DNA of 64,000 nucleotides, from the NCBI RefSeq assembly GCF_033807715.1, contig NC_084601.1, forward strand, positions 20,602,129 through 20,666,128. Reading direction: 5' to 3'. Source of the stretch: Cololabis saira (lineage: Eukaryota > Chordata > Actinopteri > Beloniformes > Belonidae). Below, in pieces: positions 1 through 47,400 of this stretch. The position numbers and the translations under genes are program-made. Under the pieces are notes generated by a model. It made no database searches, was not told the origin of the DNA, and saw only the letters and a list, made by a program, of their open reading frames with translations. The first letter of the stretch is position 1. Each line of letters starts with the position of its first letter.

Positions 1-1862
1 CTTTTGGAGAACTATCAAATATGGACCAATCAGATGAAGGGGGCGCACTTTTTGGCGTCGAGTGTTGCCACGGTAACACTTTTGAATGAGAAAAGTAATG
101 CGCGTCGTCGCAGGAAGGAGACGCACATGTTGATGTAAAAAAAAAAACACACAAATTGCTGACAATAATCATTGCATTGAGCTGGAATCGATCCCACGAT
201 CTCCCACACGAAAGACGGTGAGATTACCGCTGAGCCACGAATCAGCTTGGCAGTTTTCTGACTGACTGACTTAGGAGATACCAACATAGCGATATAATCT
301 GAGTCCCGAATTGTTTTTTCGTAATTTTAAAATATTTGTAAGATATAAATATTAGTAAAACCCCACTATTTGTTCTTTTGTGAATAGCATGTTCCAGTCT
401 TTACTTCCTAGACACACACACTGCATGGAAGGGAGCGTTTGATTTATTGTTCACGTAACATTACTTTTATTTTTTCACAACCAAACCACGCACTTTATTT
501 ATGTCATTTGCACTGGGCAAGGACAAAAAATAAATGATTCCACCAAAATTCCAGAGATTTTTGTGGTTGGCTGACACATTAGGCTACCAGCATATTTCAA
601 ATATGTCAAACCATTCAAAAGTTATAGTCAGAAAATATGGACAACCAATCAGAAGAAGGGGCGGGGCTAATTCAGGCCAACGAAGCTTAAGAACTCATTA
701 CAGAGTCCCATGACACCACCCACGACTTCCTATGTCAAACCATTAAAAAGTTATAGCAGAAAAAAGGGACAACCAATCAGAAGAAGGGGCGGGGCTAATT
801 CAGGCCAATGAAGGTCAAGGACTCCATAAAGAATCTGATGACACCACCCACGACTTCCTATGTCAAACCATTCAAAAGTTATGGCAGAGAAAAGTTTTCT
901 AGGGGGCGCTGTTGAGCCGTTAGGCCACGCCCTTTAATGCAAACCATGAAATATCAAATTTATCGCCAAGTCTGGCTTGCATGCAAAATTTGGTGACTTT
1001 TGGGAAACTATCAAATATGGACCAATCAGATGAAGGGGGGGCGCGCTTTTTGGCGTCTAGCGTCGCCACGGTAACACTTTTGAAAGAGAAAAGTAATGCG
1101 CATAGTCGCAGGATGGAGACGCACATTTTGATGTATAACACATCTGGGTTCACGATACGGTTCGGGCCGTATTAATTCTCAAAGGAATGGCATATATTGC
1201 TCCAAAATTACGTGATTAATTAAGAATGTTCAAAATGGCCGACTTCCTGTTCGGTTTAGGCCATGGCGCCAAGAGACTTTTCTTTAAGTAGCGACATGAT
1301 AAAGATGTGTACCGATTTTCGTTCATGTACGTCAAACCGTATTCTGGGGCTTGAGGCGCAAAGTTTTTTCTGTCTGAACCAATCAGATGATGGGTGGGCG
1401 CGCTTTTTGGCGTCTAGCGTCGCCACGGTAACGCTTTTGAGAGAGAAAAGTAATGCGTGGTGTCGGAGGATGGAGACGCACATTTTGATGTATAACACAC
1501 ATGGGGGCTCGTTACGGTTCGGGCCGTATTAACTGCCGAAGGAATGGCATAAATTTCGCCAAAATGACACGATTAATTCAAAATGGCCGACATCCTGTTC
1601 GGTTTCGGGCATGACTCCAAGAGACTTTTCTTTAAGTTGTGCAATGATACAGGTGTGTACTGATTTTCGTGCATGTAGGTCAAACCGTATCGTGGGGCTT
1701 GAGGCACAAAGTTTTCCGGGGGGCGCTGTTGAGCCATTTTGCCACGCCCATTAATGCAAACCATAAAATATCAAATTTTTCGCCAGGCCTGGTTTGCGTG
1801 CAAAATTTGGTGACTTTTTGGGCACGTTTAGGGGGGCAAAAAGGCCCTCCTTTCGTCAGAAA
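1..1862 (+). repeat. X-box repeat family, block A (5' end outside window)
   Basis: Interspersed repeat built from recurring modules: an X-box module (GTYGCC-AC-GGTAAC at 64-77, 1062-1075 and 1419-1432), CCAAT/GC modules of about 127 bp around 600-890, a module with GGGGGCGCTG (899-911 and near 1716), and a module with AAATGGCCGACTTCCTG near 1234-1249. It ends in the family's 3' segment (a pyrimidine/G-rich stretch then CTTTCGTCAGAAA), directly followed by (TAA)n. Short ORFs on both strands are stop-bounded, differ between copies and share no conserved protein, so I treat the block as non-coding. Transposon class is not known to me. Confidence 0.8.
181..246 (-). repeat. tRNA-derived segment (SINE-like), copy 1
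   Basis: Read on the minus strand this has a box A-like GTGGCTCAGCGGTAATC and a box B-like GGGATCGATTCC at tRNA-like spacing, with a poly-T/A stretch beyond. The DNA before it (minus-strand upstream, about 247-345) is similar to that beside the second copy at 2881-2949, so both belong to one retroposed unit embedded in the repeat family. Lack of a clean acceptor stem argues against a functional tRNA gene. Confidence 0.55.
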
Positions 1863-1880
1863 AATAATAATAATAATAAT
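1863..1880 (+). repeat. (TAA)n joining blocks A and B
   Basis: Six TAA units lie exactly between the 3' end of block A and the 5' terminus of block B (AAAGCTGCAAGCAGCGATGA). Similar tracts sit at 5080-5099, 7761-7772 and 9377-9398, always at the family's unit boundaries. Confidence 0.85.
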
Positions 1881-2880
1881 TAAAGCTGCAAGCAGCGATG
1901 AACGGGCCCTCGCACTCACGGCCGCCGCCCCCCATAAGCATATCAGAAATGACACCACCCACGACTTCCTATGTCAAACCATTCAAAAGTTATAGCAGAA
2001 AAAAGGGACAACCAATCACAAGAAGGGGCGGGGCTAATTCAGGCCAATGAAGGTCAAGGACTCCATACAGAGTCTGATGACACCACCCACGACTCTCCAT
2101 GTCAAACCATTCAAAAGTTATAGCAGGAAATAGGGACAACCAATCAAAAGAAGGGGCGGGGCTAATTTTCACCAATTATGGTCAAGGACTCAATACCGAG
2201 TCCCATGACACCACCCATGACTCTTTATGTCAAACCATTCAAAAGTTATGGCAGAGAAAAGTTTTCCGGGGGGTGCTGTTGAGCCATTTTGCCACGCCCA
2301 TTAATGCAAACCATGAAATATCAAATTTATCACCAGGCCTGGCTTGCATGCAAAATTTGGTGACTTTTGGAGAACTATCAAATATGGACCAATCAGATTA
2401 AGGGGGCACGCTTTTTGGCGTCTAGCATCGCCACGGTAACACTTTTGAAAGAGAAAAGTAATGCGCGTAGTCGCAAGATGGAGACGCACATTTTGAGGTA
2501 TAAGTCACCTGGATGCACGTTACGGTTCGGGCCGTATTAATTGCCGAAGGAATGGCATTAATTGCGCCAAAATTACAGAATTAATTCAAAATGGCCGACT
2601 TCCTGTTCAATTTCGGCCATGGCGCCAAGAGACTTTTCTTTAAGTTGCGACATGATACAGGTGTGTACCGATTTTCGTTCATGTACGTCAAACCGTATTA
2701 TGGGGCTTGAGGCTCAAAGTTTTTCCCTCTGAACCAATCAGATGAAGGGTGGGCGCACTTTTTGGTGTCTAGCGTTGCCGCGGTAACGCTTTTAAATGAG
2801 AAAAGTAATGTGCGTCGTTGCAGGACAGGGACGCACATATTGATGTAGAAAAAAAAAAATTGCTGACAAAAAAGTCAGAA

Positions 2881-2949
2881 TACTGCGGGAATCGAACTCT
2901 GATCTCTGACTCCAAAGACGGGAACGCTCTGGCTGAGCTAAGACTCAGC
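2881..2949 (-). repeat. tRNA-derived segment (SINE-like), copy 2
   Basis: Minus strand shows box A-like TTAGCTCAGCCAGAGCG and box B-like GAGTTCGATTCCCGC about 35 bp apart, as in a tRNA gene. Flanking sequence on the minus-strand upstream side (about 2950-3060) resembles the flank of copy 1. The equivalent in block C (6112-6139) keeps only the box B half, ending at a deletion. The anticodon stem does not pair well, so this is a retroposed relic. Confidence 0.6.
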
Positions 2950-3146
2950 TTCTCATTTCTATTTGACCTACTGACTTAGCAGAGACCAACATATCGATAT
3001 TTAGTAATGTAAATCTGGAGCTGTTTTTTCTAATTTTTTTAAATATTTGTAAGTTATAAATATTAGTAAAACCCTACTATTTTAATTATTACTTTTTCTG
3101 TAACCATTCTGCCAAGGTTGTAACCGGGCTGAGCTGGGAATATTTC

Positions 3147-3395
3147 TGACGTCACCACATTACAGGGAGCTGATTGGTCGGGGGGCGGGGCCGTTATCAC
3201 CCTACTCGCCACTGATTGGTCGGGGGGCGGGGCCGTCATCACCCTACTCGCCACCGATTGGTCGGGGGGCGGGGCCGTCATCACCCTCCGCGCCACTGAT
3301 TGGTCGGGGGGCGGGGCCGGCAGACGTTTGAATCAGGAAGCGGGAGTCAGCGCGAGAGCGACTGGCGGCTCGTGGCGATTTTATTATAAAAAAGG
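3147..3395 (+). promoter_or_regulatory. Promoter-like cluster: CRE, CCAAT/GC minisatellite, TATA-like box
   Basis: A perfect CRE palindrome TGACGTCA (3147-3154) precedes four 42-bp units, each with an inverted CCAAT box (GATTGG) abutting a GC box (GGGGCGGGGC). About 60 bp further on lies a TATA-like TATTATAAA (3382-3390). The spacing fits a promoter firing rightward into the repeat, but no downstream gene is visible. Motifs are seen directly; promoter activity is inferred. Confidence 0.45.
3171..3318 (+). repeat. 42-bp minisatellite, 4 units (last partial)
   Basis: Units start at 3171, 3213, 3255 and 3297, the last cut after 22 bp. Each begins TGATTGGTCG, continues with a GGGGCGGGGCC box and ends with CACCCTACTCGCCAC or a close variant. 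Because 42 is a multiple of three it gives a spurious 14-residue periodic ORF on the minus strand. Confidence 0.9.
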
Positions 3396-5079
3396 GACAA
3401 CCAATCAGAAGAAGGGGCGGGGCTAATTAAGGCCAACGAAGCTTAAGGACTCATTACAGAGTCCCATGACACCACCCACGACTTCCTATGTCAAACCATT
3501 CAAAAGTTATAGCAGAAAAAAGGGACAACCAATCAGAAGAAGGGGCGGGGCTAATTCAGGCCAACGAAGCTTGAGGACTCATTACAGAGTCCCATGACAC
3601 CACCCACGACTTCCTATGTCAAACCATTCAAAAGTTATGGCAGAGAAAAGTATTCTAGGGGGCGCTGTTGAGCCGTTAGGCCACGCCCATTAATGCAAAC
3701 CATGAAATATCAAATGTATCGCCAAGTCTGGCTTGCATGCAAAGTTTGGTGACTTTTGGAGAACTATCAAATATGGACCAATCACATGAAGGGGGGGCGC
3801 GCCTTTTGGCGTCTAGCGTCGCCACGGTAACACTTTTGAAAGAGAAAAGTAATGCGTGGTGTCGCAGGATGTAGACGCACATTTTGATGTATAACACACC
3901 TGGGTGCAGGTTACGGTTCGGGCTGAATTAACTGCCGAAGGAATGGCATAAATTTAGCCAAAATGACACAATGTATTCAAAATGGCCGACTTCCTGTTCG
4001 GTTTCGGCCATGGCTCCGAGAGACTTTTCTTTAAGTTGTGCCATGATACAGGTGTGTAGCGATTTTCGTGCATGTACGTCAAACCGTATTGTGGGGCTTG
4101 AGGCACAAAGTTTTCCGGGGGGCGCTGTTGAGCCATTTTGCCACGCCCATTAATGCAAACCATGAAATATCAAATTTATCGCCAGGCCTGGCTTGCATGC
4201 CAAATTTGGTGCCTTTTGGGGAACTATCAAATATGGACCAATCAGATGAAGGGGGGGTGCGCTTGTTGGCGTCTAGCGTCGCCACGGTAACACTTTCGAA
4301 AGAGAAAAGTAATGCGTGTAGTCGCAGGATGGAGACGCACATTTTGATGTATAACACATCTGGGTTCACGATACGGTTCGGGCTGAATTAACTCTCGAAG
4401 GAATGGCATATATTGCTCCAAAATTACGCAATTAATTCAGAATGTTCAAAATGGCCGACTTCCTTTTCGGTTTCGGCCATGGCGCCAAGAGACTTTTCTT
4501 TTAGTTGCGACATGATACAGGTGTGTACCGATTTTCGTTCATGTACGTCAAACCGTATTATGGGGCTTGAGGCGCAAAGTTTTTTCTGTCTGAACCAATC
4601 AGATGAAGGGTGGGCACGCTTTTTGGCGTCTAGCGTCGCCACGGTAACGCTTTCGAAAGAGAAAAGTAATGCGTGGGGTCGGATGATGGAGACGCACATT
4701 TTGATGTATAACACACTTGGGGGAACATTACGGTTCGGGCTGAATTAACTTTCGAAGGAATGGCATAAATTTCGCCAAAATGACACGACTAATTCAAAAT
4801 GGCTGACATCCTGTTCGGTTTCGGGCATGACCCCAAGAGACTTTTGTTTAAGTTGTCCCATGATACAGGTGTGTACCGATTTTCGTCCATGTACGTCTAA
4901 CAGTATCGTGGGGCTTGAGGCACAAAGTTTTCAAGGGGGCGCTGTTGAGCCATTTTGCCACGCCCATTAATGCAAACCTTTAAATATCAAATTTTTCGCC
5001 AGGCCTGACTAGGGTGCAAAATTTGGTGACTTTTTGGGCATGTTAAGGGGGGCAAAAAGGCCTTCACTTTGTCAGGAAA

Positions 5080-5099
5080 ATAATAATAATAATAATAAT
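5080..5099 (+). repeat. (TAA)n joining blocks B and C
   Basis: Short TAA microsatellite between the 3' segment of block B and the 5' terminus of block C. Confidence 0.85.
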
Positions 5100-6243
5100 T
5101 AAAGCTGCAAGCAGCGATGAACGGGCCCTCGCACTCACGGCCGCCGCCCCCCATAAGCATATCAGAAATGACACCACCCACGACTTCCTATGTCAAACCA
5201 TTCAAAAGTTATAGCAGAAAAAAGGGACAACCAATCACAAGAAGGGGCGGGGCTAATTCAGGCCAATGAAGGTCAAGGACTCCATACAGAGTCTGATGAC
5301 ACCACCCACGACTCTCCATGTCAAACCATTCAAAAGTTATAGCAGGAAATAGGGACAACCAATCAAAAGAAGGGGCGGGGCTAATTTTCACCAATTATGG
5401 TCAAGGACTCAATACCGAGTCCCATGACACCACCCATGACTCTTTATGTCAAACCATTCAAAAGTTATGGCAGAGAAAAGTTTTCGGGGGGGTGCTGTTG
5501 AGCCATTTTGCCACGCCCATTAATGCAAACCATGAAATATCAAATTTATCACCAGGCCTGGCTTGCATGCAAAATTTGGTGACTTTTGGAGAACTATCAA
5601 ATATGGACCAATCAGATTAAGGGGGCACGCTTTTTGGCGTCTAGCATCGCCACGGTAACACTTTTGAAAGAGAAAAGTAATGCGCGTAGTCGCAAGATGG
5701 AGACGCACATTTTGAGGTATAAGTCACCTGGATGCACGTTACGGTTCGGGCCGTATTAATTGCCGAAGGAATGGCATTAATTGCGCCAAAATTACACAAT
5801 TAATTCAAAATGGCCGACTTCCTGTTCAATTTCGGCCATGGCGCCAAGAGACTTTTCTTTAAGTTGCGACATGATACAGGTGTGTACCGATTTTCGTTCA
5901 CGTACGTCAAACCGTATTATGGGGCTTGAGGCTCAAAGTGTTTTCCCTCTGAACCAATCAGATGAAGGGTGGGCGCACTTTTTGGTGTCTAGCGTTGCCG
6001 CGGTAACGCTTTTAAATGAGAAAAGTAATGTGCGTCGTTGCAGGACAGGGACGCACATATTGATGTAGAAAAAAAAAAAATTGCTGACAAAAAAGTCTGG
6101 ATACTGCGGGAATCGAACTCTGATCTCTGACTCCAAAGAATATTTGTAAGTTATAAATATTAGTAAAACCCTACTATTTTAATTATTACTTTTTCTGTAA
6201 CCATTCTGCCAAGGTTGTAACCGGGCTGAGCTGGGAATATTTC

Positions 6244-6529
6244 TGACGTCACCACATTACAGGGAACTGATTGGTCGGGGGGCGGGGCCGTCATCACCCT
6301 ACTCGCCACTGATTGGTCGGGGGGCGGGGCCGTCATCACCCTACTCGCCACCGATTGGTCGGGGGGCGGGGCCGTCATCACCCTCCGCGCCACTGATTGG
6401 TCGGGAGGCGGGGCCGTCATCACCCTACTCGCCACCGATTGGTCGGGGGGCGGGGCCGGCAGACGTTTGAATCAGGAAGCGGGAGTCAGCGCGAGAGCGA
6501 CTGGCGGCTCGTGGCGATTTTATTATAAA
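6244..6529 (+). promoter_or_regulatory. Second promoter-like cluster (CRE, minisatellite, TATA-like)
   Basis: Same arrangement as at 3147-3395: CRE TGACGTCA at 6244-6251, five CCAAT/GC units and a TATTATAAA near 6521-6529. It is a duplicate, not an independent occurrence, except for its extra minisatellite unit. Confidence 0.45.
6268..6457 (+). repeat. 42-bp minisatellite, 5 units (last partial)
   Basis: Units start at 6268, 6310, 6352, 6394 and 6436. One more unit than in block B, so the array has changed length since the duplication. The fourth unit has GGGAGGC instead of GGGGGGC. Confidence 0.9.
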
Positions 6530-7772
6530 AAAGGGACAACCAATCAGAAGAAGGGGTGGGGCTAATTCAGGCCAAAGAAGCTCAAGGACTCATTGCAGAG
6601 TCCCTTGACACCACCTACGACTTCCTATGTCAAACCATTCAAAGTTTATAGCAGAAAAAAGGGACAACCAATCAGAAGAAGGGGCGGGGCTAATTCAGGC
6701 CAATGAAGGTCAAGGACTCCATACAGAATCTGATGACACCACCCACGACTCTCTATGTCAAACCATTCAAAAGTTATGGCAGAGAAAAGTATTCAAGGTG
6801 GCGCTGTTGAGCCGTTAGGCCACGCCCATTAATGCAAACCATGAAATATAAAATTTATCACCAGGCCTGGCTTGCATGCCAAATTTGGTGCCTTTTGGGG
6901 AACTATCAAATATGGACCAATCAGATGAAGGGGGGGTGCGCTTGTTGGCGTCTAGCGTCGCCACGGTAACACTTTCGAAAGAGAAAAGTAATGCGTGTAG
7001 TCGCAGGATGGAGACGCACATTTTGATGTATAACACATCTGGGTTCACGATACGGTTCGGGCTGAATTAACTCTCGAAGAATGGCATATATTGCTCCAAA
7101 ATTACGCAATTAATTCAGAATGTTCAAAATGGCCGACTTCCTGTTCGGTTTCGGCCATGGCGCCAAGAGACTTTTCTTTTAGTTGCGACATGATACAGGA
7201 GTGTACCAATTTTCGTTCATGTACGTCAAACCGTATTATGGGGCTTGAGGCGCAAAGTTTTTTCTGTCTGAACCAACCAGATGAAGGGTGGGCGCGCTTT
7301 TTGGCGTCTAGCGTCGCCACGGTAACGCTTTTGAAAGAGAAAAGTAATGCGTGTGGTCGCAGGAGGGAGACGCACATTTTGATGTATAATACACCTGGGT
7401 GCACGTTACGGTTCGGGCTGAATTAACTGCCGAAGGAATGGCATAAATTGCGCCAAAATGACACGATTAATTCAAAATGGCCGACTTCCTGTTTGGTTTC
7501 GGGCATGACGGCAAGAGACTTTTCTTTAAGTTGTCCCATGATACAGGTGTGTACCGATTTTCGTGCATGTACGTCAAACCGTATCGTGGGGCTTGAGGCA
7601 CAAAGTTTTCAAGGGGGCGCTGTTGAGCCATTTTGCCACGCCCATTAATGCAAACCATTAAATATCAAATTTTTCGCCAGGCCTGACTTGGGTGCAAAAT
7701 TTGGTGACTTTTTGGGCATGTTAAGGGGGGCAAAAAGGCCATCACTTTGTCAGAAGAAAAATAATAATAATA

Positions 7773-9376
7773 ACTAGAAAATTTCATGAAATTTTGATAT
7801 GGGCATGCCCTACGGCCCATTCGACCCCTCTCGCTGCTTTGGTTTAGGGCTGTAGTGGTTGTGTTCGGGGTGGTTCTATGTCAGTTTGAGGTGTTTAGAG
7901 TTGTATTGCATTCATTCCTGTGCTCCCAATAGTTATTAATGGGGCGCGCTTTTTGGCATCTAGCGTCGCCACGGTAACGCTTTTGACTGAGAATAGTAAT
8001 GCCCATCGAGGCAAGATGGAGACGCATCCAACGATGTATGCCGTGCATGGGTACACGTTCCGGTTCAGACTATGTTAAAGGATAGGTTTTTTTTTTCACC
8101 GTGGTACAAAACCCCATCCGAATGAATGGGGCCATTTGGCCTGGATTTTGACATAAAATTTCCTTAAATCCCAGCTTCATGAAATTTGAGTATGTTGAAG
8201 TCCACAGCGTGCCGAGTCAGGGAACATTTGTACGATGTCTCTACGGTAACCTGTTGCCTAGCAACAAGCCTCCAAATTCAAACAGAAATTTAAAAAAAAA
8301 ATGAAAGGTCAATATCGCAAAAACTGTAATAATTAGCATAATGAGGTTGTAGCCTCCGTTAGTGCCAATCGGGCCTAGTGTTTGAAAGTTTCAACGATGT
8401 CTCTACGATAAAGTTCGGCCGAGCAATAAGCGTCCAAATTTTTGCCTTTTTTTTTTGCTTTTTGGCAACTAGCGTTGCCACGGTAACCCCTATTACGGAG
8501 AAAAGTAATGCCCATCGAGGCACAATGGAGACGCATCTAACGATGTATGCCATGTATGGGTGCATGTTCCGGTTCAGGCTATGTTAACGGATAGGTTTTT
8601 TTTTCACCATGGTGAAAAACTCCATCCGAATGAATGGGGCCATTTGGCCTGGATTTTGACATAACATTTCCTTAAATCCCAGCTTCATGAAATTTGAGTA
8701 TGTTGAAGTCCACAGCGTGCCGAGTCGGGAAACATTTGTACGATGTCTCTACGATAATCTGTTGCCTAGCAACAAGCGTCCAAAGTCAAACGGAAAAAAA
8801 AAAAAAATGAAAGGTCAATATCACAAAAACTGTAATACTTGGCATAATAAGGTTGTACGGTCGGTTAGGGACAATCGGGCTGAGTGTTTGAAAGTTTGAA
8901 CGATGTCTCTACGATAAAGTTTGGCCGAGCAATAAGCGCGGGAATTTTCGCCTTTTTTTTTGCTTTTTGGCAACTAGCGTTGCCACGGTAACCCCTATTA
9001 CGGAGAAAAGTAATGCCCATCGAGGCATGATGGAGACGCATCCAACGATGTATGCCATGCATGGGTGCACGTTCCGGTTCGGGCCGCATTAACGGACGAA
9101 AAAAAGTGCGGAATAAGAATAATAATAAAAAGAAAAGGGAAACCTTTTCTAGATACTAATATATCGCCTTCATTTTCATGTTTTTCCTCGTTTTTCCGGC
9201 CGTGTTTTAGTTTTTGGGGATTTTTTTTTTCCACATCCGAGCGTGGTCATGCTGTACACCCGCTGGTGCGCAGTGGGACTTTTGCGACTTTAGCTTGTTA
9301 GCAAAATGCTAGCAACATTGCCCTTTGGGCCATTCTGGACGATTGCAATATGGTCATGCCATTACTTGGCATGCCC
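7773..9376 (+). repeat. Diverged X-box repeat subfamily, block D, with ~508-bp tandem units
   Basis: Contains two copies of a unit of about 508 bp: the stretch starting GGATAGGTTTTTTTT recurs at about 8081 and 8589, GTTGCCTAGCAAC at 8253-8265 and 8761-8773, and GTTGCCACGGTAAC at 8474-8487 and 8979-8992. A GTCGCC-type X-box at 7964-7977 and the words GAGAAAAGTAATGC and GGAGACGCA tie it to the main family, while the rest is distinct. No coding capacity seen. Confidence 0.75.
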
Positions 9377-9637
9377 ATAATAATAATAATAATAATAAAA
9401 ATTCCTGCAAATACAATAGGGCCTTCGCACTGCAAGTGCTCGGGCCCTAATAATAATAATAAAAATTCCTGCAAATACAATAGGGCCTTCGCACTGAAGG
9501 TGCTCGGGCCCTAATAATAATAACGCGAAGAATTCCTACAGATACAATAGGGCCTTCGCACTGAAGGTGCTCGGGCCCTAATAATAAAAATTCCTGCAAA
9601 TACAATAGGGCCTTCGCACTGAAGGTGCTCGGGCCCT
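9377..9637 (+). repeat. Four tandem copies of the family's 3' terminus with (TAA)n
   Basis: A terminal unit of about 50-65 bp (AAAATTCCTRCAR, then ATACAATAGGGCCTTCGCAC, ending GTGCTCGGGCCCTAA) repeats four times, ending at about 9446, 9511, 9578 and 9636. Each carries a hairpin in which GGGCC and GCAC pair with GTGC and GGCCC. Units are separated by TAA repeats. Confidence 0.85.
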
Positions 9638-11511
9638 AATTAAAGCTGCAAGCAGCGATGATCGGGCCCTCGCACTCATGGCCACCGCCCCCATAAGCAT
9701 ATCAGAAATGACACCACCCACGACTTCCTATGTCAAACCATTCAAAAGTTATAGCAGAAAAAAGGGACAACCAATCAGAAGAAGGGGCGGGGCTAATTCA
9801 GGCCAATGAAGGTGAAGGACTCCATACAGAATCTGATGACACCACCCACGACTCTCTATGTAAAACCATTCAAAAGTTATAGCAGAAAAAAGGGACAACC
9901 AATCAGAAGAAGGGGCGGGGCTAATTAAGGCCAACGAAGCTTAAGAACTCATTACAGAGTCCCATGACACCACCCACGACTTCCTATGTCAAACCATTAA
10001 AAAGTTATAGCAGAAAAAAGGGACAACCAATCAGAAGAAGGGGCGGGGCTAATTCAGGCCAATGAAGGTCAAGGACTCCATAAAGAATCTGACGACACCA
10101 CCCAGGACTCTCTATGTCAAACCATTCCAAAGTTATATCAGAAAATCGGGACAACCAATCAGAAGAAGGGGCGGGGCTAATTAAGGCCAACGAAGCTTAA
10201 GGACTCATTACAGAGTCCCATGACACCACCCACAACTCTCTATGTCAAACCATTCAAAAGTTATGGCAGAGAAAAGTATTCTAGGGGGCGCTGTTGAGCC
10301 GTTAGGCCACGCCCATTAATGCAAACCATGAAATATCAAATTTATCGCCAGGCCTGGCTTGCATGCAAAATTTGGTGACTTTTGGAGAACTATCAAATAT
10401 GGACCAATCAGATTTCAAAATGGCCGACTTCCTGTTCGGTTTGGGCCATGGCTCCAAGAGACTTTTCTTTAGGTTGTGCCATCATACAGGTGTGTAGCGA
10501 TTTTCGTGCATGTACGTCAAACAGTATTGTGGGGCTTGAGGTACAAAGTTTTCCGGGGGGCGCTGTTGAGCCATTTTGCCACGCCCATTAATGCAAACCA
10601 TGAAATATCAAATTTATCGCCAGGCCTGGCTTGCGTGCCAAATTTGGTGCCTTTTGGGGAACTGTCAAATATGGACCAATCAGATGAAGGGGGGGTGCTC
10701 TTGTTGGCGTCTAGCGTCGCCACGGTAACACTTTTGAAAGAGAAAAGTAATGCGGGTAGTCGCAGGATGGAGACGCACATTTTGATGTATAACACATCTG
10801 GGTGCACGTTACGGTTCGGGCCGTATTAATTCTCGAAGGAATGGCATATATTGCTCCAAAATTACGCGATTAATTCAGAATGTTCAAAATGGCCGACTTC
10901 CAGTTCGGTTTCGGCCATGGCGCCAAGAGACTTTTCTTTAAGTTGCGACATGATACAGGTGTGTACCGATTTTCGTTCATGTACGTCACACCGTATTCTG
11001 GGGCTTGAGGCGCAAAGTTTTTTCGGTCTGAACCAACCAGATGAAGGGTGGGCGCGCTTTTTGGCGTCTAGCGTCGCCACGGTAACGCTTTAGAAAGAGA
11101 AAAGTAATGCGTGTTGTCGCAGGATGGAGACGCACATTTTAATGTATAACACACCTCGGTGCACGTTACGGTTCGGGCCGTATTAACTGCCGAAGGAATG
11201 GCATAAATTGCGCCAAAGTGACACGATTAATTCAAAATGGCTGACTTCCTGTTTGGTTTCGGCCATGTCGCCAAGAGACTTTTCTTTAAGTTGTGTACTG
11301 ATACAGGCGTGTAGCGATTTTCGTGCATGTACGTCAAACCGTATTGTGGGGCTTGAGTCACAAAGTTTTCCGGGGGCGCTGTTGAGCCATTTTGCCACGC
11401 CCATTAATGTAAACCATTAAATATAAAAATTTTCGCCAGGCCTGACTTGCATGCAAAATTTGGTGACTTTTTGGGCACGTTTAGGGGGGCAAAAAGGCCC
11501 TCCTTTCGTCA

Positions 11512-16459: not shown

Positions 16460-17340
16460 TCCAGCCACGACTCTCTATATCAAATCATTCAAAGGTTATG
16501 GCAGAAAGTAGGAACTATCAGATATCGACCAATCAGATGAAGGGGCAGGGCTAATTTGCACCAATTATGTTCAAGAACTCAAAACCGAGTCAGATGACAC
16601 CACCCACGAGTCTTTATGTCAAACCATTCAAAAGTTATTGCAGAAAATTGGATCTATGAAATATCGACCAATCAGAAAAAGGGGCGGGGCTAATTCATGC
16701 CAATGAAGGTCAAGTACTCAAAACCGAGTCAGATGACACCACCCACGACTCTCTATATCAAACCATTCAAATGTTATAGCAGAAGGTAGGAACTATCAAA
16801 TATGGACCAAGTGGGGGCGCGCTTTTTGGCATCTAGCGTCGCCACGGTAACGCTTTTGCCTGAGAAAAGTAATGCCCATCGTCGCAGGATCGAGACACAC
16901 ATTTTGATGTATAACACACCTGGGTGCAGGTTACGGTTCGGGCGAAGAAACGGCCGAAAAAATGGCATAAATTGCGCCAAAATTACACGATTAATTCAAA
17001 ATGGTTGACTTCCTGTTCAGCCAAGAGACTTTTGCGACATGATATGATTGCGACATGATACGTGTACCGATTTTCGTGCATGTACGTCAAACCGTATTGT
17101 GGGGCTTGAGGCACGAAGTTTTCTAGGGGGCGCTGTTGAGCCATTAGGCCACATTAATGCTAACCATTAAATAACACATTTTTCACCAGGCCTGGCTTGC
17201 ATGCAAAATTTGGTGACTTTTGGGCACGTTTAGGGGGACAAAAAGGCCCTAATTTCGTCGGAAGAAGGAAAAAAAAAAAAAAAATGGGAAAAATTCCTAC
17301 AGATACAATAGGACCTTCACACTGTCAGTGCTCGGGCCCT
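16460..17340 (+). repeat. X-box repeat family, copy F (5' truncated)
   Basis: Has CCAAT/GC modules (about 16460-16790), an X-box GTCGCCACGGTAAC at 16838-16851, CTCF-core-like CTAGGGGGCGCTG at 17123-17135 and the 3' hairpin terminus ending CTCGGGCCCT at 17340. The family's 5' terminus is missing, so the left boundary is approximate. Confidence 0.8.
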
Positions 17341-39986: not shown

Positions 39987-41048
39987 GGCCCGAGCACTTA
40001 CAGTGCGAAGGCCCTATTGTGTCTGTAGGAATTTTTATTATTATTCTTCTGACGAAAGGAGGACCTTTTTGCCCCCCTAAACGTGCCCCAAAAGTCACCA
40101 AATTTTGCACGCAAGCCAGGCCTGGCGAAAAATTTTATATTTAATGGATTGCATTAATGGGCGTGGCAAACTGGCTCAACAGCGCCCCCTAGAAAACTTT
40201 GTGCCTCAAGCCCCACAATACGGTTTGACGTATATGCACGAAAATCCGTACACACCTGTATCATGTTGCAACTTAGAGAAAAGTCTCTTGGCACCATGGC
40301 CAAAACCGAACAGGAAGTTGGCCATTTTGAATTAATCATGTCATTTTGGCGAAATTTATGCCATTTCTTCAGCCGCTTCAGAGCCCGAACCGTAACGTGC
40401 ACCCAGGTGTGTTATACATCAAAATGTGCGTCTGTATCCTGCGACAACGCGCATTACTTTTCTCAGTCAAAAGCGTTACCGTGGCGACGCTAGACGCCAA
40501 AAAGCGCGCCCACCCTTCATCTGATTGGTCCATATTTGATAGTTCCCCAAAAGTCATCAAATTTTGCACGAAAGCCAGGCCTGGTGATACATTTGATATT
40601 TCATGGTTTGCATTAATGGGCGTGGCAAGATGGCTCAACAGCGCCCCCTAGAAAACCTTTCTCTGCCATAACTTTTGAATGGTTTGACAAAGAGTCGTGG
40701 GTGGTGTCATCGGACTCAGTATTGAGTCCTTGACCTTCATTGGCATGAATTAGCCCCGCCCCTTATTCTGATTGGTCGATATGTGATAATTCCGATTTTC
40801 TGCAATAACTTTTGAATGGGGTGACATAAAGAGTTGTGGGTGGTGTCATCGGACATGGTTTTGAGTCCTTGAACATAATTGGTGCAAATTAGCCCCGCCC
40901 CTTCTTCTGATTGGTCGATATTTCATAGTTCCTATTTTCTGCCATAACTTTTGAATGGTTTGACATAGAAAGTCATGGGTGGTGTTATTTCTGATATGCT
41001 TATGGGGGGCGGTGGCCATGAGTGCAAGGGCCCGTTCATCGCTGCTTT
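39987..41048 (-). repeat. X-box repeat family, full-length solitary copy G
   Basis: Contains, in minus-strand order, the 5' terminus (AAAGCAGCGATGAACGGGCC), three CCAAT/GC modules, CTAGGGGGCGCTG (40639-40651), a CCAAT box and X-box (40475-40488), a YY1/ETS-like module, a second CTAGGGGGCGCTG (40180-40192) and the 3' hairpin terminus with (TAA)n just before it. At 1062 bp it is the best reference for the family. No coding capacity and no clear target duplication; TAA-rich flanks obscure any. Confidence 0.85.
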
Positions 41049-41521: not shown

Positions 41522-42237
41522 TATATGTATCTGCATGTAGAGCAGGAGGGTCAGAGCCGATCACTCAAGACGCTTTCTGTTGCATATTTTAACTCTGTGG
41601 ACAGCCGTTAAAGGCATTTTTACCTGACGTCTGACCCCAGCATGGTCGGTTATTTTTTTGCCAGCATATAATATTGCCAGGTTAAATGGAGCCTAACTTT
41701 TAACAGAAACAAAATATCATTTTACAAATTACTGATTGCCTGGAAATTATCAGCATCCCATCCTGCTTCATACAGGCCCCTTTTAAATCAGAGCAGAGCT
41801 GCTCTTGTAGGACTTCTCAACCAGGTCAAAATCTTAGCTGGCGCTAGCGCTGGTTTAAGACCGATGCCAGTGCCAGCTAAATCATCAAAGCAGAAGCAGG
41901 AAAGCCTTAAAGTGAAACTCTTCAGAACAACAACAATTAAAAAAAAGAATTTTGGTAAGTGCAAACGATGCTCATGGCCCTAAAAATCTTGCTTGGAGTT
42001 CGAAATCGACTTCATGCAATTTTCCACCATCAGAATTATAAAGTTCACTTTGGTCGAACATATGAAAATTAGCCCTCTGATTCATGGGTGTTTATATTTA
42101 ATCCCAGCAGCAACCGAGGGAAAGACTCATACTTAGGCCAGGAAAACAGTCCCTTAACCCTTGTCCCATCCTCAAGTAACACATTCTCACGTTGCCAAAC
42201 TGATCATCTGGATTAGTAGTTTCCCCCTAAAACAGGG

Positions 42238-42513
42238 TGTGGCAGAGTGGAGGAGCTGCAGCCACTCAGGCTGACGGGACACAGGTGTGGCCCATCAACC
42301 TCTCCACCCTGCCAGCCTTATAAGAGGAGAAGCTGCTGCTGAGACGGGTGGTCTGCTGATGTCGGAGGAGCTGCTGGTGGATGCTGTGGGAGAAGGTGCT
42401 TCTGCACGTGTGTGGCGGTGATCTGGGTGATTTGCGTGAATAAAAGGGTCTGCACAAAGCTCCGTGTCCTCTCCATCCTGTCGGTCGGGCCCCGTGGCAC
42501 TCACACTGCTACA
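42238..42513 (+). repeat. LTR1 of the composite
   Basis: TGTGGCAGAG to CACTGCTACA, 276 bp, with TTATAAG near 42318 and AATAAA at 42439-42444. Confidence 0.88.
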
Positions 42514-42514
42514 C

Positions 42515-42532
42515 TGGCGCCCAACGTGGGGC
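42515..42532 (+). other. Primer-binding site (tRNA-Lys type)
   Basis: TGGCGCCCAACGTGGGGC, one base after LTR1, is the exact primer-site word complementary to tRNA-Lys1,2 used by many LTR elements. Confidence 0.88.
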
Positions 42533-42540
42533 CTGACGGG

Positions 42541-42875
42541 ATGGACAAGGGAGGCACGGAGCGGGCCCTGGCCAATGGGGACTTGAACGCCCTGCTCCGG
42601 GACCAGGGCGAGCATCAGCTCGCTGTGCTGGCGGCGCTGATGCCCGCGGAGCGACCCACCCCTGCGCCACGCTTGAGGTTCGCCGCAGCAGCGCGGGAGG
42701 AGCTGGCGGCGCCGCAGCTGATAGGCTGGGAGGCAGAAGCTGCGGGCCGCCAAGTGACGGAGAGAGCGGCTTCCTCGGCCGTTAGGCCGACGCCGGGGAC
42801 AATCCCCCCGACCAGGAAGGCCCGGGGGGTTCCGAGCTTCCTCTCCCGCTCCGAGGGGGCGGGGGGGGGGGGGGG
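42541..42875 (+). pseudogene. Short gag-start remnant and polypurine tract
   Basis: An ATG at 42541 opens MDKGGTERALANG and stays open to about 42897, into LTR2, giving a stub of about 118 residues with no recognised domain. A second copy of its start (MEKGGTEWALEA) lies inverted at about 43174-43120. GAGGGGGCGGGG-type purine run at 42853-42875 directly precedes LTR2 and serves as the polypurine tract. Confidence 0.65.
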
Positions 42876-43122
42876 TGTGGCAGGGTGGAGAGGTTGAGAG
42901 GTCCTGGACGCCCTGCTCTGGCCGCTGGTCCGGCCCCGTCTCCGCGGGGGGAGGTTGGAGAGGCTGAGTGGCTGCCGCTCTCCACCCTGCCTGCCTTATA
43001 AGGCAGAGCTGGACAGCAGCAAGTCATCGGAGGAGCGGGTTGGCATGCTGATCGTGAGGTGTTGCTGGCGTGAGGTGCTTGTGCACTGTGTCCTGGGTGA
43101 TTTGCGGTAATAAAAGGGTCTG
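42876..43122 (+). repeat. LTR2 of the composite (U3-R only, divergent)
   Basis: Begins TGTGGCAGGGTGG and contains TTATAAGGC (42996-43004) and AATAAAAGGGTCTGC (43109-43123). It stops matching LTR1 just after the poly(A) signal; from there the sequence is the inverted gag-start segment. Upstream half differs strongly from LTR1, suggesting another subfamily. Confidence 0.75.
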
Positions 43123-43179
43123 CCATCGCCTGGGCGAGCGCCTCCAGGGCCCACTCCGTGCCTCCCTTCTCCATCCCAG

Positions 43180-43437
43180 TGTAGCAAGGCGAGTGCTATG
43201 GGGCCCGACCGACAGGATAGAGGACACAGAGTTTTGTGCAGAACCCTTTATTCGTCAAACACTTCCCAAACACCGCCACACGTGGACAAGCACAGCTCCA
43301 GCAGCTCCTCCAACATCAGCAGACCACCCGTCTCAGCAGCAGCTTCTCCTCTTATAAGGCTGGCAGGGTGGAGAGGTTGACGGGCCACACCTGTGTCCCG
43401 TCAGCCTGAGTGGCTGCAGCTCCTCCACTCTGCCACA
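43180..43437 (-). repeat. LTR3 of the composite (inverted)
   Basis: On the minus strand runs TGTGGCAGAG to CTTGCTACA, 258 bp, with its own TATA-like TTATAAG and AATAAA (complement of 43247-43252). It is much closer to LTR1 than LTR2 is. The primer site that should follow it is absent: the gag ATG lies only 6 nt beyond. Confidence 0.85.
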
Positions 43438-43442
43438 CAGGG

Positions 43443-46299: not shown

Positions 46300-47400
46300 T
46301 CCGGTGAGTCTAACAGATTTTTATAGTGGAACTGACCATGTACTTATATTCTTTGAATTATAGTGGACTTTGTGTAATGCGCAACTGGCGATACATGAGT
46401 GGGTGTGGGTGTGGGGGGGACACAACCTCACGTGGGCTCCCCGACGCTGATGGAGCTGTTTACCTGTCTGTGGTGCTGAAATGGTTGTTTGGCTGTGGTA
46501 TACTCTGTGTGGTGGCTTTATTAATTGCTGTGTATTGCATGTGCGCCGTACACGCCATGCTCGTGCACGGTCGTGCTTGTGCATTGTGTTTTTATTGTTG
46601 TCACGTTGCTGTTTCGATCTTGAGTATTTGATATGAGCTCTTGAACAGTGCCCATTTGGTAGCGCTATTGATATGATAATATATGTCGTTAGATTGGCAC
46701 TGTTTGTGTGATGATGGCATTATTCAGCTTCAATTTTGTGGTCAAAGGTGCTGTGGTCCCTTCTCTCACTTGATACTGATTGCATAAGATTTTCCAGCAT
46801 GGCCCCACCAAAATTTACAGACCAAAATCGCCACTGGTAAACGCTAGGACATCCGTCTATGTGGGGTTGATAAAAGAGCCCATAACAATGTTTTTACCCA
46901 CAACCCTCGGCATGATCATAGAGTACTGATCCCAAAATTTCTGAAACTCGGGACAGGAGAAAAACATATGGCTTAGATTACACAGAGAACCTTGGCATCT
47001 ATCACATAAATCGGGAACATTTTGGTAGATTTTAGATAACCGTGACTTTGAGAAGTGGGCCCTATGTAGCACTTTGAGTTGGATAATCGCTAGTCTAGTG
47101 CAGGGTGCGCTAGATCGGATGGTGCAAACATCTTCATCCCACAGCTCATCAGTCAAGTCCATACCCAACTCCTGCGACCAACTGATTCGAGCTTTAACCA
47201 CTGAATCTTTATCACATTTCATCAAGTGCGCATATATCTTAGATATAAGAGATTTCTGACCTAGTTTCAGAGTCAGGATATCATCCCATGGTTGGTCGGC
47301 CGGTAGGGAAGGGAAGTTAGAGAACAAAGTGGAGGCAAAATGTCAGAGTTCGAAATAAGACTCTGTCCTTATAAAGGTCCCTGAAGCGCTTAATACCGTG

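What the first reader, a model, noticed from the sequence alone, without database searches (positions are those of the whole stretch)
42238..43437. LTR composite with two U3 outer ends and a 5-bp target duplication
Seen: LTR1 (+) at the left and LTR3 (-) at the right put TGTGGCAG/CTGCCACA, both U3 termini, at the outer ends, with CAGGG directly repeated outside. Inside, the divergent LTR2 (+) stops just past its AATAAA and is joined to an inverted gag-start segment that leads into LTR3. Known: retroviral-type integrases normally join one U3 and one U5 end and leave 4-6 bp duplications. Inference: an aberrant reverse-transcription product (template switching between two copies of different subfamilies, switching near the poly(A) site) gave a U3-U3 cDNA, and integrase accepted it.
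Basis: partly seen in the sequence, partly recalled or inferred. Interest (0 to 1): 0.8.

Follow-up and report, generated by a model that had tools for sequence, protein, structure and literature searches.

The report
Head-to-head retrotransposon with two U3 ends
A short retrotransposon was inserted in this animal genome with the same (U3) end on both sides instead of one U3 and one U5 end, and other copies of the family did the same, so the integration machinery can accept a wrongly built, head-to-head DNA.

Summary
Window 42238-43437 has U3 termini at both outer ends, flanked by a perfect 5-bp repeat, CAGGG; the inner pair LTR2-LTR3 has none. The window's own genome is held, so I fetched other copies. 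The family is a short element (0.7-1.7 kb with two LTRs), and its ordinary U3...U5 copies carry 5-bp duplications. Of 84 loci examined, six hold a U3-U3 composite with an exact 5-bp duplication (6 of 8 U3-U3 terminus pairs; 0.01-0.03 expected), one matches at 4 bp, and two more lack an intact end. No exact U5-U5 case was seen (one pair testable). The fully mapped junctions differ. Here, 7 nt of microhomology (GGTCTGC) lie between R, just past AATAAA, and the inverted gag start. In L009 and L030 one arm ends at the U5 end of unintegrated cDNA (LTR+CT); the right arm here breaks there within 2 nt. In the window and L033 the arms share U3 but differ in R-U5. Best reading: two plus-sense reverse-transcription intermediates were joined 3'-to-3' by template switching, and integrase used two U3 ends. 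End joining of partial cDNAs is not excluded. New variant of a known kind, but recurrent.

The parts
42233..42237 (.). left copy of the 5-bp target-site duplication, CAGGG
42238..42513 (+). LTR1 (U3-R-U5), TGTGGCAG...CTGCTACA; left outer U3 end
   Evidence: motif census
42515..42532 (+). primer-binding site TGGCGCCCAACGTGGGGC (Lys type; label recalled)
   Evidence: exact, the only match in the window
42533..42860 (+). gag-like internal segment, internally deleted near 42760 relative to ordinary copies (gag2 positions 160/162)
   Evidence: no Pfam family at cut-off, no protein homologue at E<=1
42861..42875 (+). G run directly before U3 of LTR2, read as polypurine tract
   Evidence: function inferred from position
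42876..43123 (+). LTR2, U3 and R only, ending just past AATAAA; U3 is of the type inverted relative to LTR1
42902..42948 (-). piece inside LTR2 U3 that matches the internal region of ordinary copies in inverse orientation
   Evidence: L2_U3a 27-73, for example in L012
43117..43123 (.). junction J2: 7-nt microhomology GGTCTGC shared by R and the inverted gag start
43124..43177 (-). inverted gag-start segment, joined to LTR3 without a PBS
43178..43179 (-). dinucleotide (CT on the LTR3 sense strand) next to the U5 end; break point of the lost PBS, uncertain by 2 nt (GG is shared by both sides)
   Evidence: LTR+CT end also in L009 and L030
43180..43437 (-). LTR3 (inverted); right outer U3 end CTGCCACA
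43438..43442 (.). right copy of the target-site duplication, CAGGG

Best explanation
This is one integrase-mediated insertion of a chimeric cDNA with a U3 end at each side. Shown: exact U3 outer ends, one 5-bp duplication, two plus-sense arms joined 3'-to-3' at a microhomology, arms with the same U3 but different R-U5, and the same plan at other sites. Inferred: within one particle, plus-sense DNA of one copy (U3-R-U5, jumped without its PBS into gag) had its 3' end, ...GCAGACC, mispaired with GGGTCTGC in R just past the poly(A) signal of a plus-sense strand of a second copy. It was extended back through that copy to its 5' end, taking on a U3 from the shared U3 source. Reciprocal synthesis made a duplex whose two ends are both the U3 terminus set by polypurine-tract priming, and integrase inserted both ends in concert.
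For: U3 at both ends with CAGGG. Six exact U3-U3 insertions in 84 loci, out of 8 U3-U3 pairs tested: TTACT (L009), ATCTT (L010), CCGTG (L030), TACTT (L033), TCGAC (L070), CAGGG (window); L049 matches at 4 bp. The junctions of these differ, so they are not copies of one object. The L030 empty site is seen in a dispersed host repeat, window 16154-16036, with a single CCGTG. J2 has 7-nt microhomology, and L069 has an R/gag join at the same place in a different LTR. One arm ends at LTR+CT in L009 and L030, and window LTR3 breaks there within 2 nt: the dinucleotide of unprocessed cDNA is kept. U3 is shared (2 and 0 differences) while R-U5 differs in window and L033; L029 and L070 show a weaker form. 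In vitro, RSV integrase does concerted integration with U3 oligonucleotide ends (PMC10209032, passages).
Against: The duplex-forming step is not seen in the genome. L030 and L033 have 0-1 nt of microhomology, which end joining explains as well. L029 and L069 lack an intact end and a duplication, so some composites entered or decayed otherwise. L030 and L009 arms do not show the U3/R-U5 split: they are alike throughout. L029 arms also differ in the first 70 nt of U3. The left arm's own 3' LTR (LTR2) has a U3 unlike its 5' U3, which needs an extra transfer. The U3/R border is only estimated from the TATA box.
Confidence: 0.62

Rival explanations
1. Two incomplete double-stranded cDNAs were joined by host end joining, and the joined molecule, with a U3 at each free end, was then integrated.
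For: Junctions differ widely, and two have 0-1 nt of microhomology (L030, L033). Arms ending at the U5 end LTR+CT (L009, L030; within 2 nt window LTR3) are what end joining of blunt cDNA would use.
Against: No U5-U5 product among 54 exact terminus pairs against six U3-U3, although random end joining would free U5 ends as often; the sample is small and only one U5-U5 pair was testable. Joins in R/gag at 7 nt (window) and 5 nt (L069, my reading), and in U3 hairpins (L010, L049), look like polymerase mispriming. It does not explain the shared U3 with different R-U5.
Confidence: 0.27
2. The composite was transcribed and copied from an older U3-U3 composite, so the joint J2 is inherited rather than made at this insertion.
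For: L069 (C16) has an R-to-inverted-gag joint at the same place, 88% identical over 95 nt.
Against: L069 has a different U3 and R, keeps the PBS and has a 5-nt rather than 7-nt overlap (my reading). It was the only other crossing match among 40 scored (of 603 first-look candidates). The other composites share no junction.
Confidence: 0.08
3. Separate or nested insertions, or an inversion after an ordinary insertion, made the arrangement.
For: LTRs in both orientations with parts of different subfamilies.
Against: The duplication fits only the outermost pair; LTR2-LTR3 has GGGGG/CAGGG. Five other loci show the same plan with their own duplications. An inversion would have to end exactly at the LTR border each time.
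Confidence: 0.01
4. Autointegration of a cDNA end into another cDNA made the inversion.
For: Autointegration is known to produce inversions (recalled).
Against: Strand transfer removes the terminal dinucleotide (recalled; also stated in PMC10209032, passages), but L009, L030 and window LTR3 keep CT. J2 and the joints of L010, L049 and L070 hold no U5 end.
Confidence: 0.01

Closest known systems
Ordinary short non-autonomous LTR retrotransposon of the same family in this genome (L016, L018-L024 and others)
   Same: LTR type, Lys-type PBS region, gag-like internal region, 5-bp target duplication
   Different: Ordinary copies have U3 at one end and U5 at the other, both LTRs in the same orientation
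HIV-1 proviruses with asymmetric LTRs (PMC9278108; passages read)
   Same: Attributed there to plus-strand strong-stop DNA of one genome copy switching to the other copy; products still integrate
   Different: The asymmetry reported is a deletion in one LTR; head-to-head LTRs were not what the passages describe
RSV integrase concerted integration with U3 oligonucleotides in vitro (PMC10209032; passages read)
   Same: Integrase joins U3-type ends to target DNA in concert
   Different: Designed ends in vitro; here germline insertions whose ends arose by reverse transcription
Retroviral defective DNAs made by aberrant plus-strand transfer (Olsen and Swanstrom 1985; recalled, not read)
   Same: Defective DNA attributed to misplaced strand transfer (recalled)
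   Different: I could not check the structures; the paper was not among those listed

Membership tests
LTR retrotransposon insertion made by a retroviral-type integrase | TG...CA termini and a short target duplication of fixed length | tested here: met
   TG/CA ends and CAGGG; ordinary copies also have 5 bp (48 exact U3-U5 pairs of 157 pairings)
LTR retrotransposon insertion made by a retroviral-type integrase | One U3 and one U5 outer terminus | tested here: not met
   Both outer termini are U3
Short non-autonomous (TRIM-like) LTR element | PBS and polypurine tract, short length, no coding capacity | tested here: met
   PBS exact, G run before U3 of LTR2, 1.2 kb, no Pfam family at cut-off, no protein homologue at E<=1
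Short non-autonomous (TRIM-like) LTR element | Moved by an autonomous partner with the same LTR ends | not tested
   No partner was looked for; the fetched stretches (2.2-6.3 kb) could have cut a longer element
Solo LTR or nested insertion | Each unit has its own target duplication | tested here: not met
   LTR2-LTR3 flanks GGGGG/CAGGG; LTR1-LTR3 flanks CAGGG/CAGGG
Autointegration product | Processed CA end joined inside the element, terminal dinucleotide lost | tested here: not met
   CT kept in L009, L030 and window LTR3
Assembly artefact (palindromic read) | Arms identical, no target duplication | tested here: not met
   Window arms 84.6% identical over 280 aligned positions and CAGGG present; reads not available

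The most novel reading that the evidence does not exclude
U3-U3 insertion is a standing side pathway of this family: plus-strand DNAs dimerise 3'-to-3', often at natural palindromes in U3 or at the unprocessed U5 end, integrase pairs two U3 ends as readily as U3 and U5, and about one in ten sampled target-duplicated insertions arise this way. The same palindromes would also explain how a subfamily arose whose U3 is the inverted form of the other's, so a reverse-transcription accident becomes a source of new LTR promoters.
Probability: 0.3. Interest if true: 0.75.

Novelty: new variant of a known kind. Interest (0 to 1): 0.6.

Why it matters
Integration is taught as needing one U3 and one U5 end of the same cDNA. 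A germline family in which 6 of 54 sampled terminus pairs with exact duplications are U3-U3 (5 of 53 without the window) gives natural products from which the accident can be read. The U3 terminus set by polypurine priming seems enough at both sides, and the junctions record where the joining happened (poly(A) region, unprocessed U5 end, U3 hairpin, inside gag). Programs that look for direct repeats would probably file such insertions as broken solo LTRs or nested debris (not tested). The question becomes testable by counting U3-U3 against U5-U5 ends in other families and genomes.

Tried and rejected
A nested or second insertion, autointegration and an assembly artefact were considered and rejected (see rivals and membership test). 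Looking for relatives elsewhere led nowhere: viral contigs gave no match to the U5-PBS stretch, the protein search no homologue of the gag-like frame, Pfam no family at cut-off, and Rfam nothing in the window. A whole-genome count of U3 ends could not be made: the genome search answered only, so copy numbers are lower bounds and the sample is what three queries ranked highest. Of the places those calls listed I hold all, all but two (C7:23512804 and C3:51139270; one more, C20:4291275, is cut by the end of L012), and 27 of 40. L002-L008 were dropped before the counts because they duplicate later loci. Ten paper searches (listings only, plus passages of PMC9278108 and PMC10209032) gave no description of U3-U3 germline insertions; most subscription papers are not held.

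An alternative reading of the shared U3, gene conversion between the arms, is not excluded, but it would have to end at about the same place in the window (nt 137-141 from the U3 start) and L033 (nt 136).

Full report
Observation. The window segment 42238-43437 was read directly and searched for repeats. Its outer 141 nt are inverted repeats, 99% complementary (42237-42377 and 43298-43438), beginning with TGTGGCAG and ending with CTGCCACA. CAGGG stands immediately outside on both sides. LTR1 (42238-42513) is followed by one spacer base and an exact 18-nt primer-binding site at 42515-42532, the only match in the window with up to 3 mismatches (the Lys label is recalled). A gag-like stretch follows, then a G run (42861-42875) placed where a polypurine tract should be, then LTR2, which stops just past AATAAA. 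From there the sequence is an inverted gag start and the inverted LTR3.

More than chance. Own left and right flanks match in 6 of 7 U3-U3 composites, in 0 of 42 cross-pairings, and in 5 of 1400 slid positions. The inner pair LTR2-LTR3 has GGGGG and CAGGG, so it is not an insertion with its own duplication.

The family. The window lies in a held genome of 1.146 Gb in 730 contigs. From its long contigs and its repeats I take it to be a bony fish; this is my own judgement and no call names it. Three answered genome searches gave places that I fetched with flanks. Ordinary two-LTR copies with an exact duplication measure 739-1703 bp, and the LTRs compared mostly 237-284 bp. The gag-like frame has no Pfam family at cut-off and no protein homologue at E<=1. 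First-look candidates numbered 2961, 1338 and 603 for the three queries, with 40 scored each, so the family is large and my counts are lower bounds.

Recurrence. A motif census of 84 loci (L001 and L009-L091) tested every pair of outward-facing termini 150-2600 bp or 150-2700 bp apart. Exact 5-bp duplications: U3-U5 23 of 76 pairs, U5-U3 25 of 81, U3-U3 6 of 8, U5-U5 0 of 1. Many ordinary pairs fail because each element gives several pairings. L064 alone gives three of the 25. The six U3-U3 cases are the window (CAGGG), L009 on C1 (TTACT, 465 bp), L010 on C5 (ATCTT, 585 bp), L030 on C3 (CCGTG, 980 bp), L033 on C5 (TACTT, 987 bp) and L070 on C15 (TCGAC, 729 bp). The other two tested U3-U3 pairs are LTR2-LTR3 of the window, which fails, and L049 on C4, which matches at 4 bp (AATTA/ATTAT). 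L029 and L069 have the same head-to-head plan without an intact second end and, by my reading of the flanks, without a duplication. L069 was found because the query held the window's junction; the other loci were listed for LTR or gag similarity. The window itself was given, so without it the count is 5 U3-U3 among 53 exact pairs.

Empty site. For L030 the joined host flanks match a dispersed host repeat in the window itself (16154-16036, 87% over 119 nt, and 39670-39563, 79% over 114). It runs through the insertion point with one CCGTG. For L033 the joined flanks match tandem-repeat DNA on both sides of the element. For the window composite, L009, L010 and L049 no paralogous empty site was found in the sequences held; L070 was not tested.

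Junctions. In the window, R of LTR2 and the inverted gag share GGTCTGC, 43117-43123. Ordinary gag copies match from 43117 on, ordinary R from the other side to 43123. Nine of 91 held loci, one of them the window's own, carry the gag form GATGGCAGACC or its complement. L069 has the same kind of joint with a different LTR; by my reading the overlap there is 5 nt. In L009 and L030 one arm ends at ...GCTACACT or ...GCTACGCT, that is LTR plus CT. This is the end that unintegrated cDNA would have after the primer tRNA is removed with one ribonucleotide left (established for retroviruses; recalled). In L009 a 12-nt imperfect overlap makes the point less sharp. LTR3 in the window breaks at the same place before gag, uncertain by the two bases GG that both sides share; the missing PBS then reads as a strand transfer made without a PBS copy (inference). 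L010 and L049 are joined inside a U3 hairpin. L033 and L030 show 0-1 nt overlap.

Arms. Window arms differ at two CpG-type positions up to about nt 137-141 and then diverge (84.6% over 280 aligned positions). L033 arms are identical for 136 nt and then diverge. L029 arms agree from about nt 70 to 132 and then diverge, but differ at several places before that. L070 arms have three substitutions before the TATA box, small differences after it, and then diverge. L009 arms are identical over 179 nt and L030 arms differ at 5 of 252 with no such split. The TATA box lies near nt 85, so the break is near, or somewhat past, the expected U3/R border. The simplest reading for the window and L033 is that both arms took U3 from one source while R-U5 came from different RNAs. 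Among 20 ordinary two-LTR elements compared, six with lower R-U5 identity or length differences were aligned. L024 and L036 show identical U3 (at least 108 nt) and different R-U5; the other four do not show this pattern clearly. L042 and L043 carry LTRs of two U3 types in one duplicated insertion. Transfers between copies therefore occur in this family outside the composites too.

Mechanism. Shown: exact U3 ends, fixed-length duplication, differing junctions, shared U3 in two composites, unprocessed U5 ends at joints. Inferred: a plus-sense DNA that lost its template primed on another plus-sense strand and was copied back to that strand's U3 end, reciprocal synthesis made the duplex, and integrase paired two U3 ends. 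U3-type oligonucleotides serve RSV integrase in concerted integration in vitro (PMC10209032, passages). Host end joining of partial cDNAs before integration is the main rival. The absence of U5-U5 products speaks against it but the sample is small.

Odds. On checking, the number of composites with a clean shared-U3 pattern fell from three to two, and the break at LTR3 became uncertain by 2 nt. I lowered the template-switch reading from 0.65 to 0.62 and raised end joining from 0.25 to 0.27. That the insertion itself has two U3 ends I hold at about 0.97.

Novelty. Asymmetric LTRs through inter-copy plus-strand transfer are described for HIV-1 (PMC9278108, passages). I found no description of recurrent germline U3-U3 insertions in ten searches of the held library (listings only), which lacks most subscription papers. 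I therefore call it a new variant of a known kind.

Noticed in passing
L011-L016, L031 (LTRs); window 42876-42991: A second LTR subfamily has a U3 that resembles the first subfamily's U3 inverted between short inverted repeats (GGCAGGGTGGAG...CTCCACCCTGCC), upstream of the same TATA and R.
   Followed up: partly
L042, L043: Elements in ordinary orientation with an exact 5-bp duplication carry one LTR of each U3 type.
   Followed up: partly
L024, L036: The two LTRs of one element have identical U3 but clearly different R-U5, as in the window composite.
   Followed up: partly
L029 950-1432; L069: Head-to-head composites whose second arm stops inside U3 or R, without a target duplication.
   Followed up: partly
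L064 1939-2206 and 4105-4372: Two solo LTRs 2.2 kb apart with the same duplication GTGTA, probably a tandem duplication of the locus.
   Followed up: no
L017: Three LTRs with two internal regions in a row, a tandem element.
   Followed up: no
window 46857-47342 (-): Remnant of what looks like a LINE reverse transcriptase C-terminus; weak zf-RVT match below cut-off.
   Followed up: no
window 602-10276, 16461-16810, 40662-40985: Similar tandem arrays of a 128- to 139-bp unit recur along the window.
   Followed up: no
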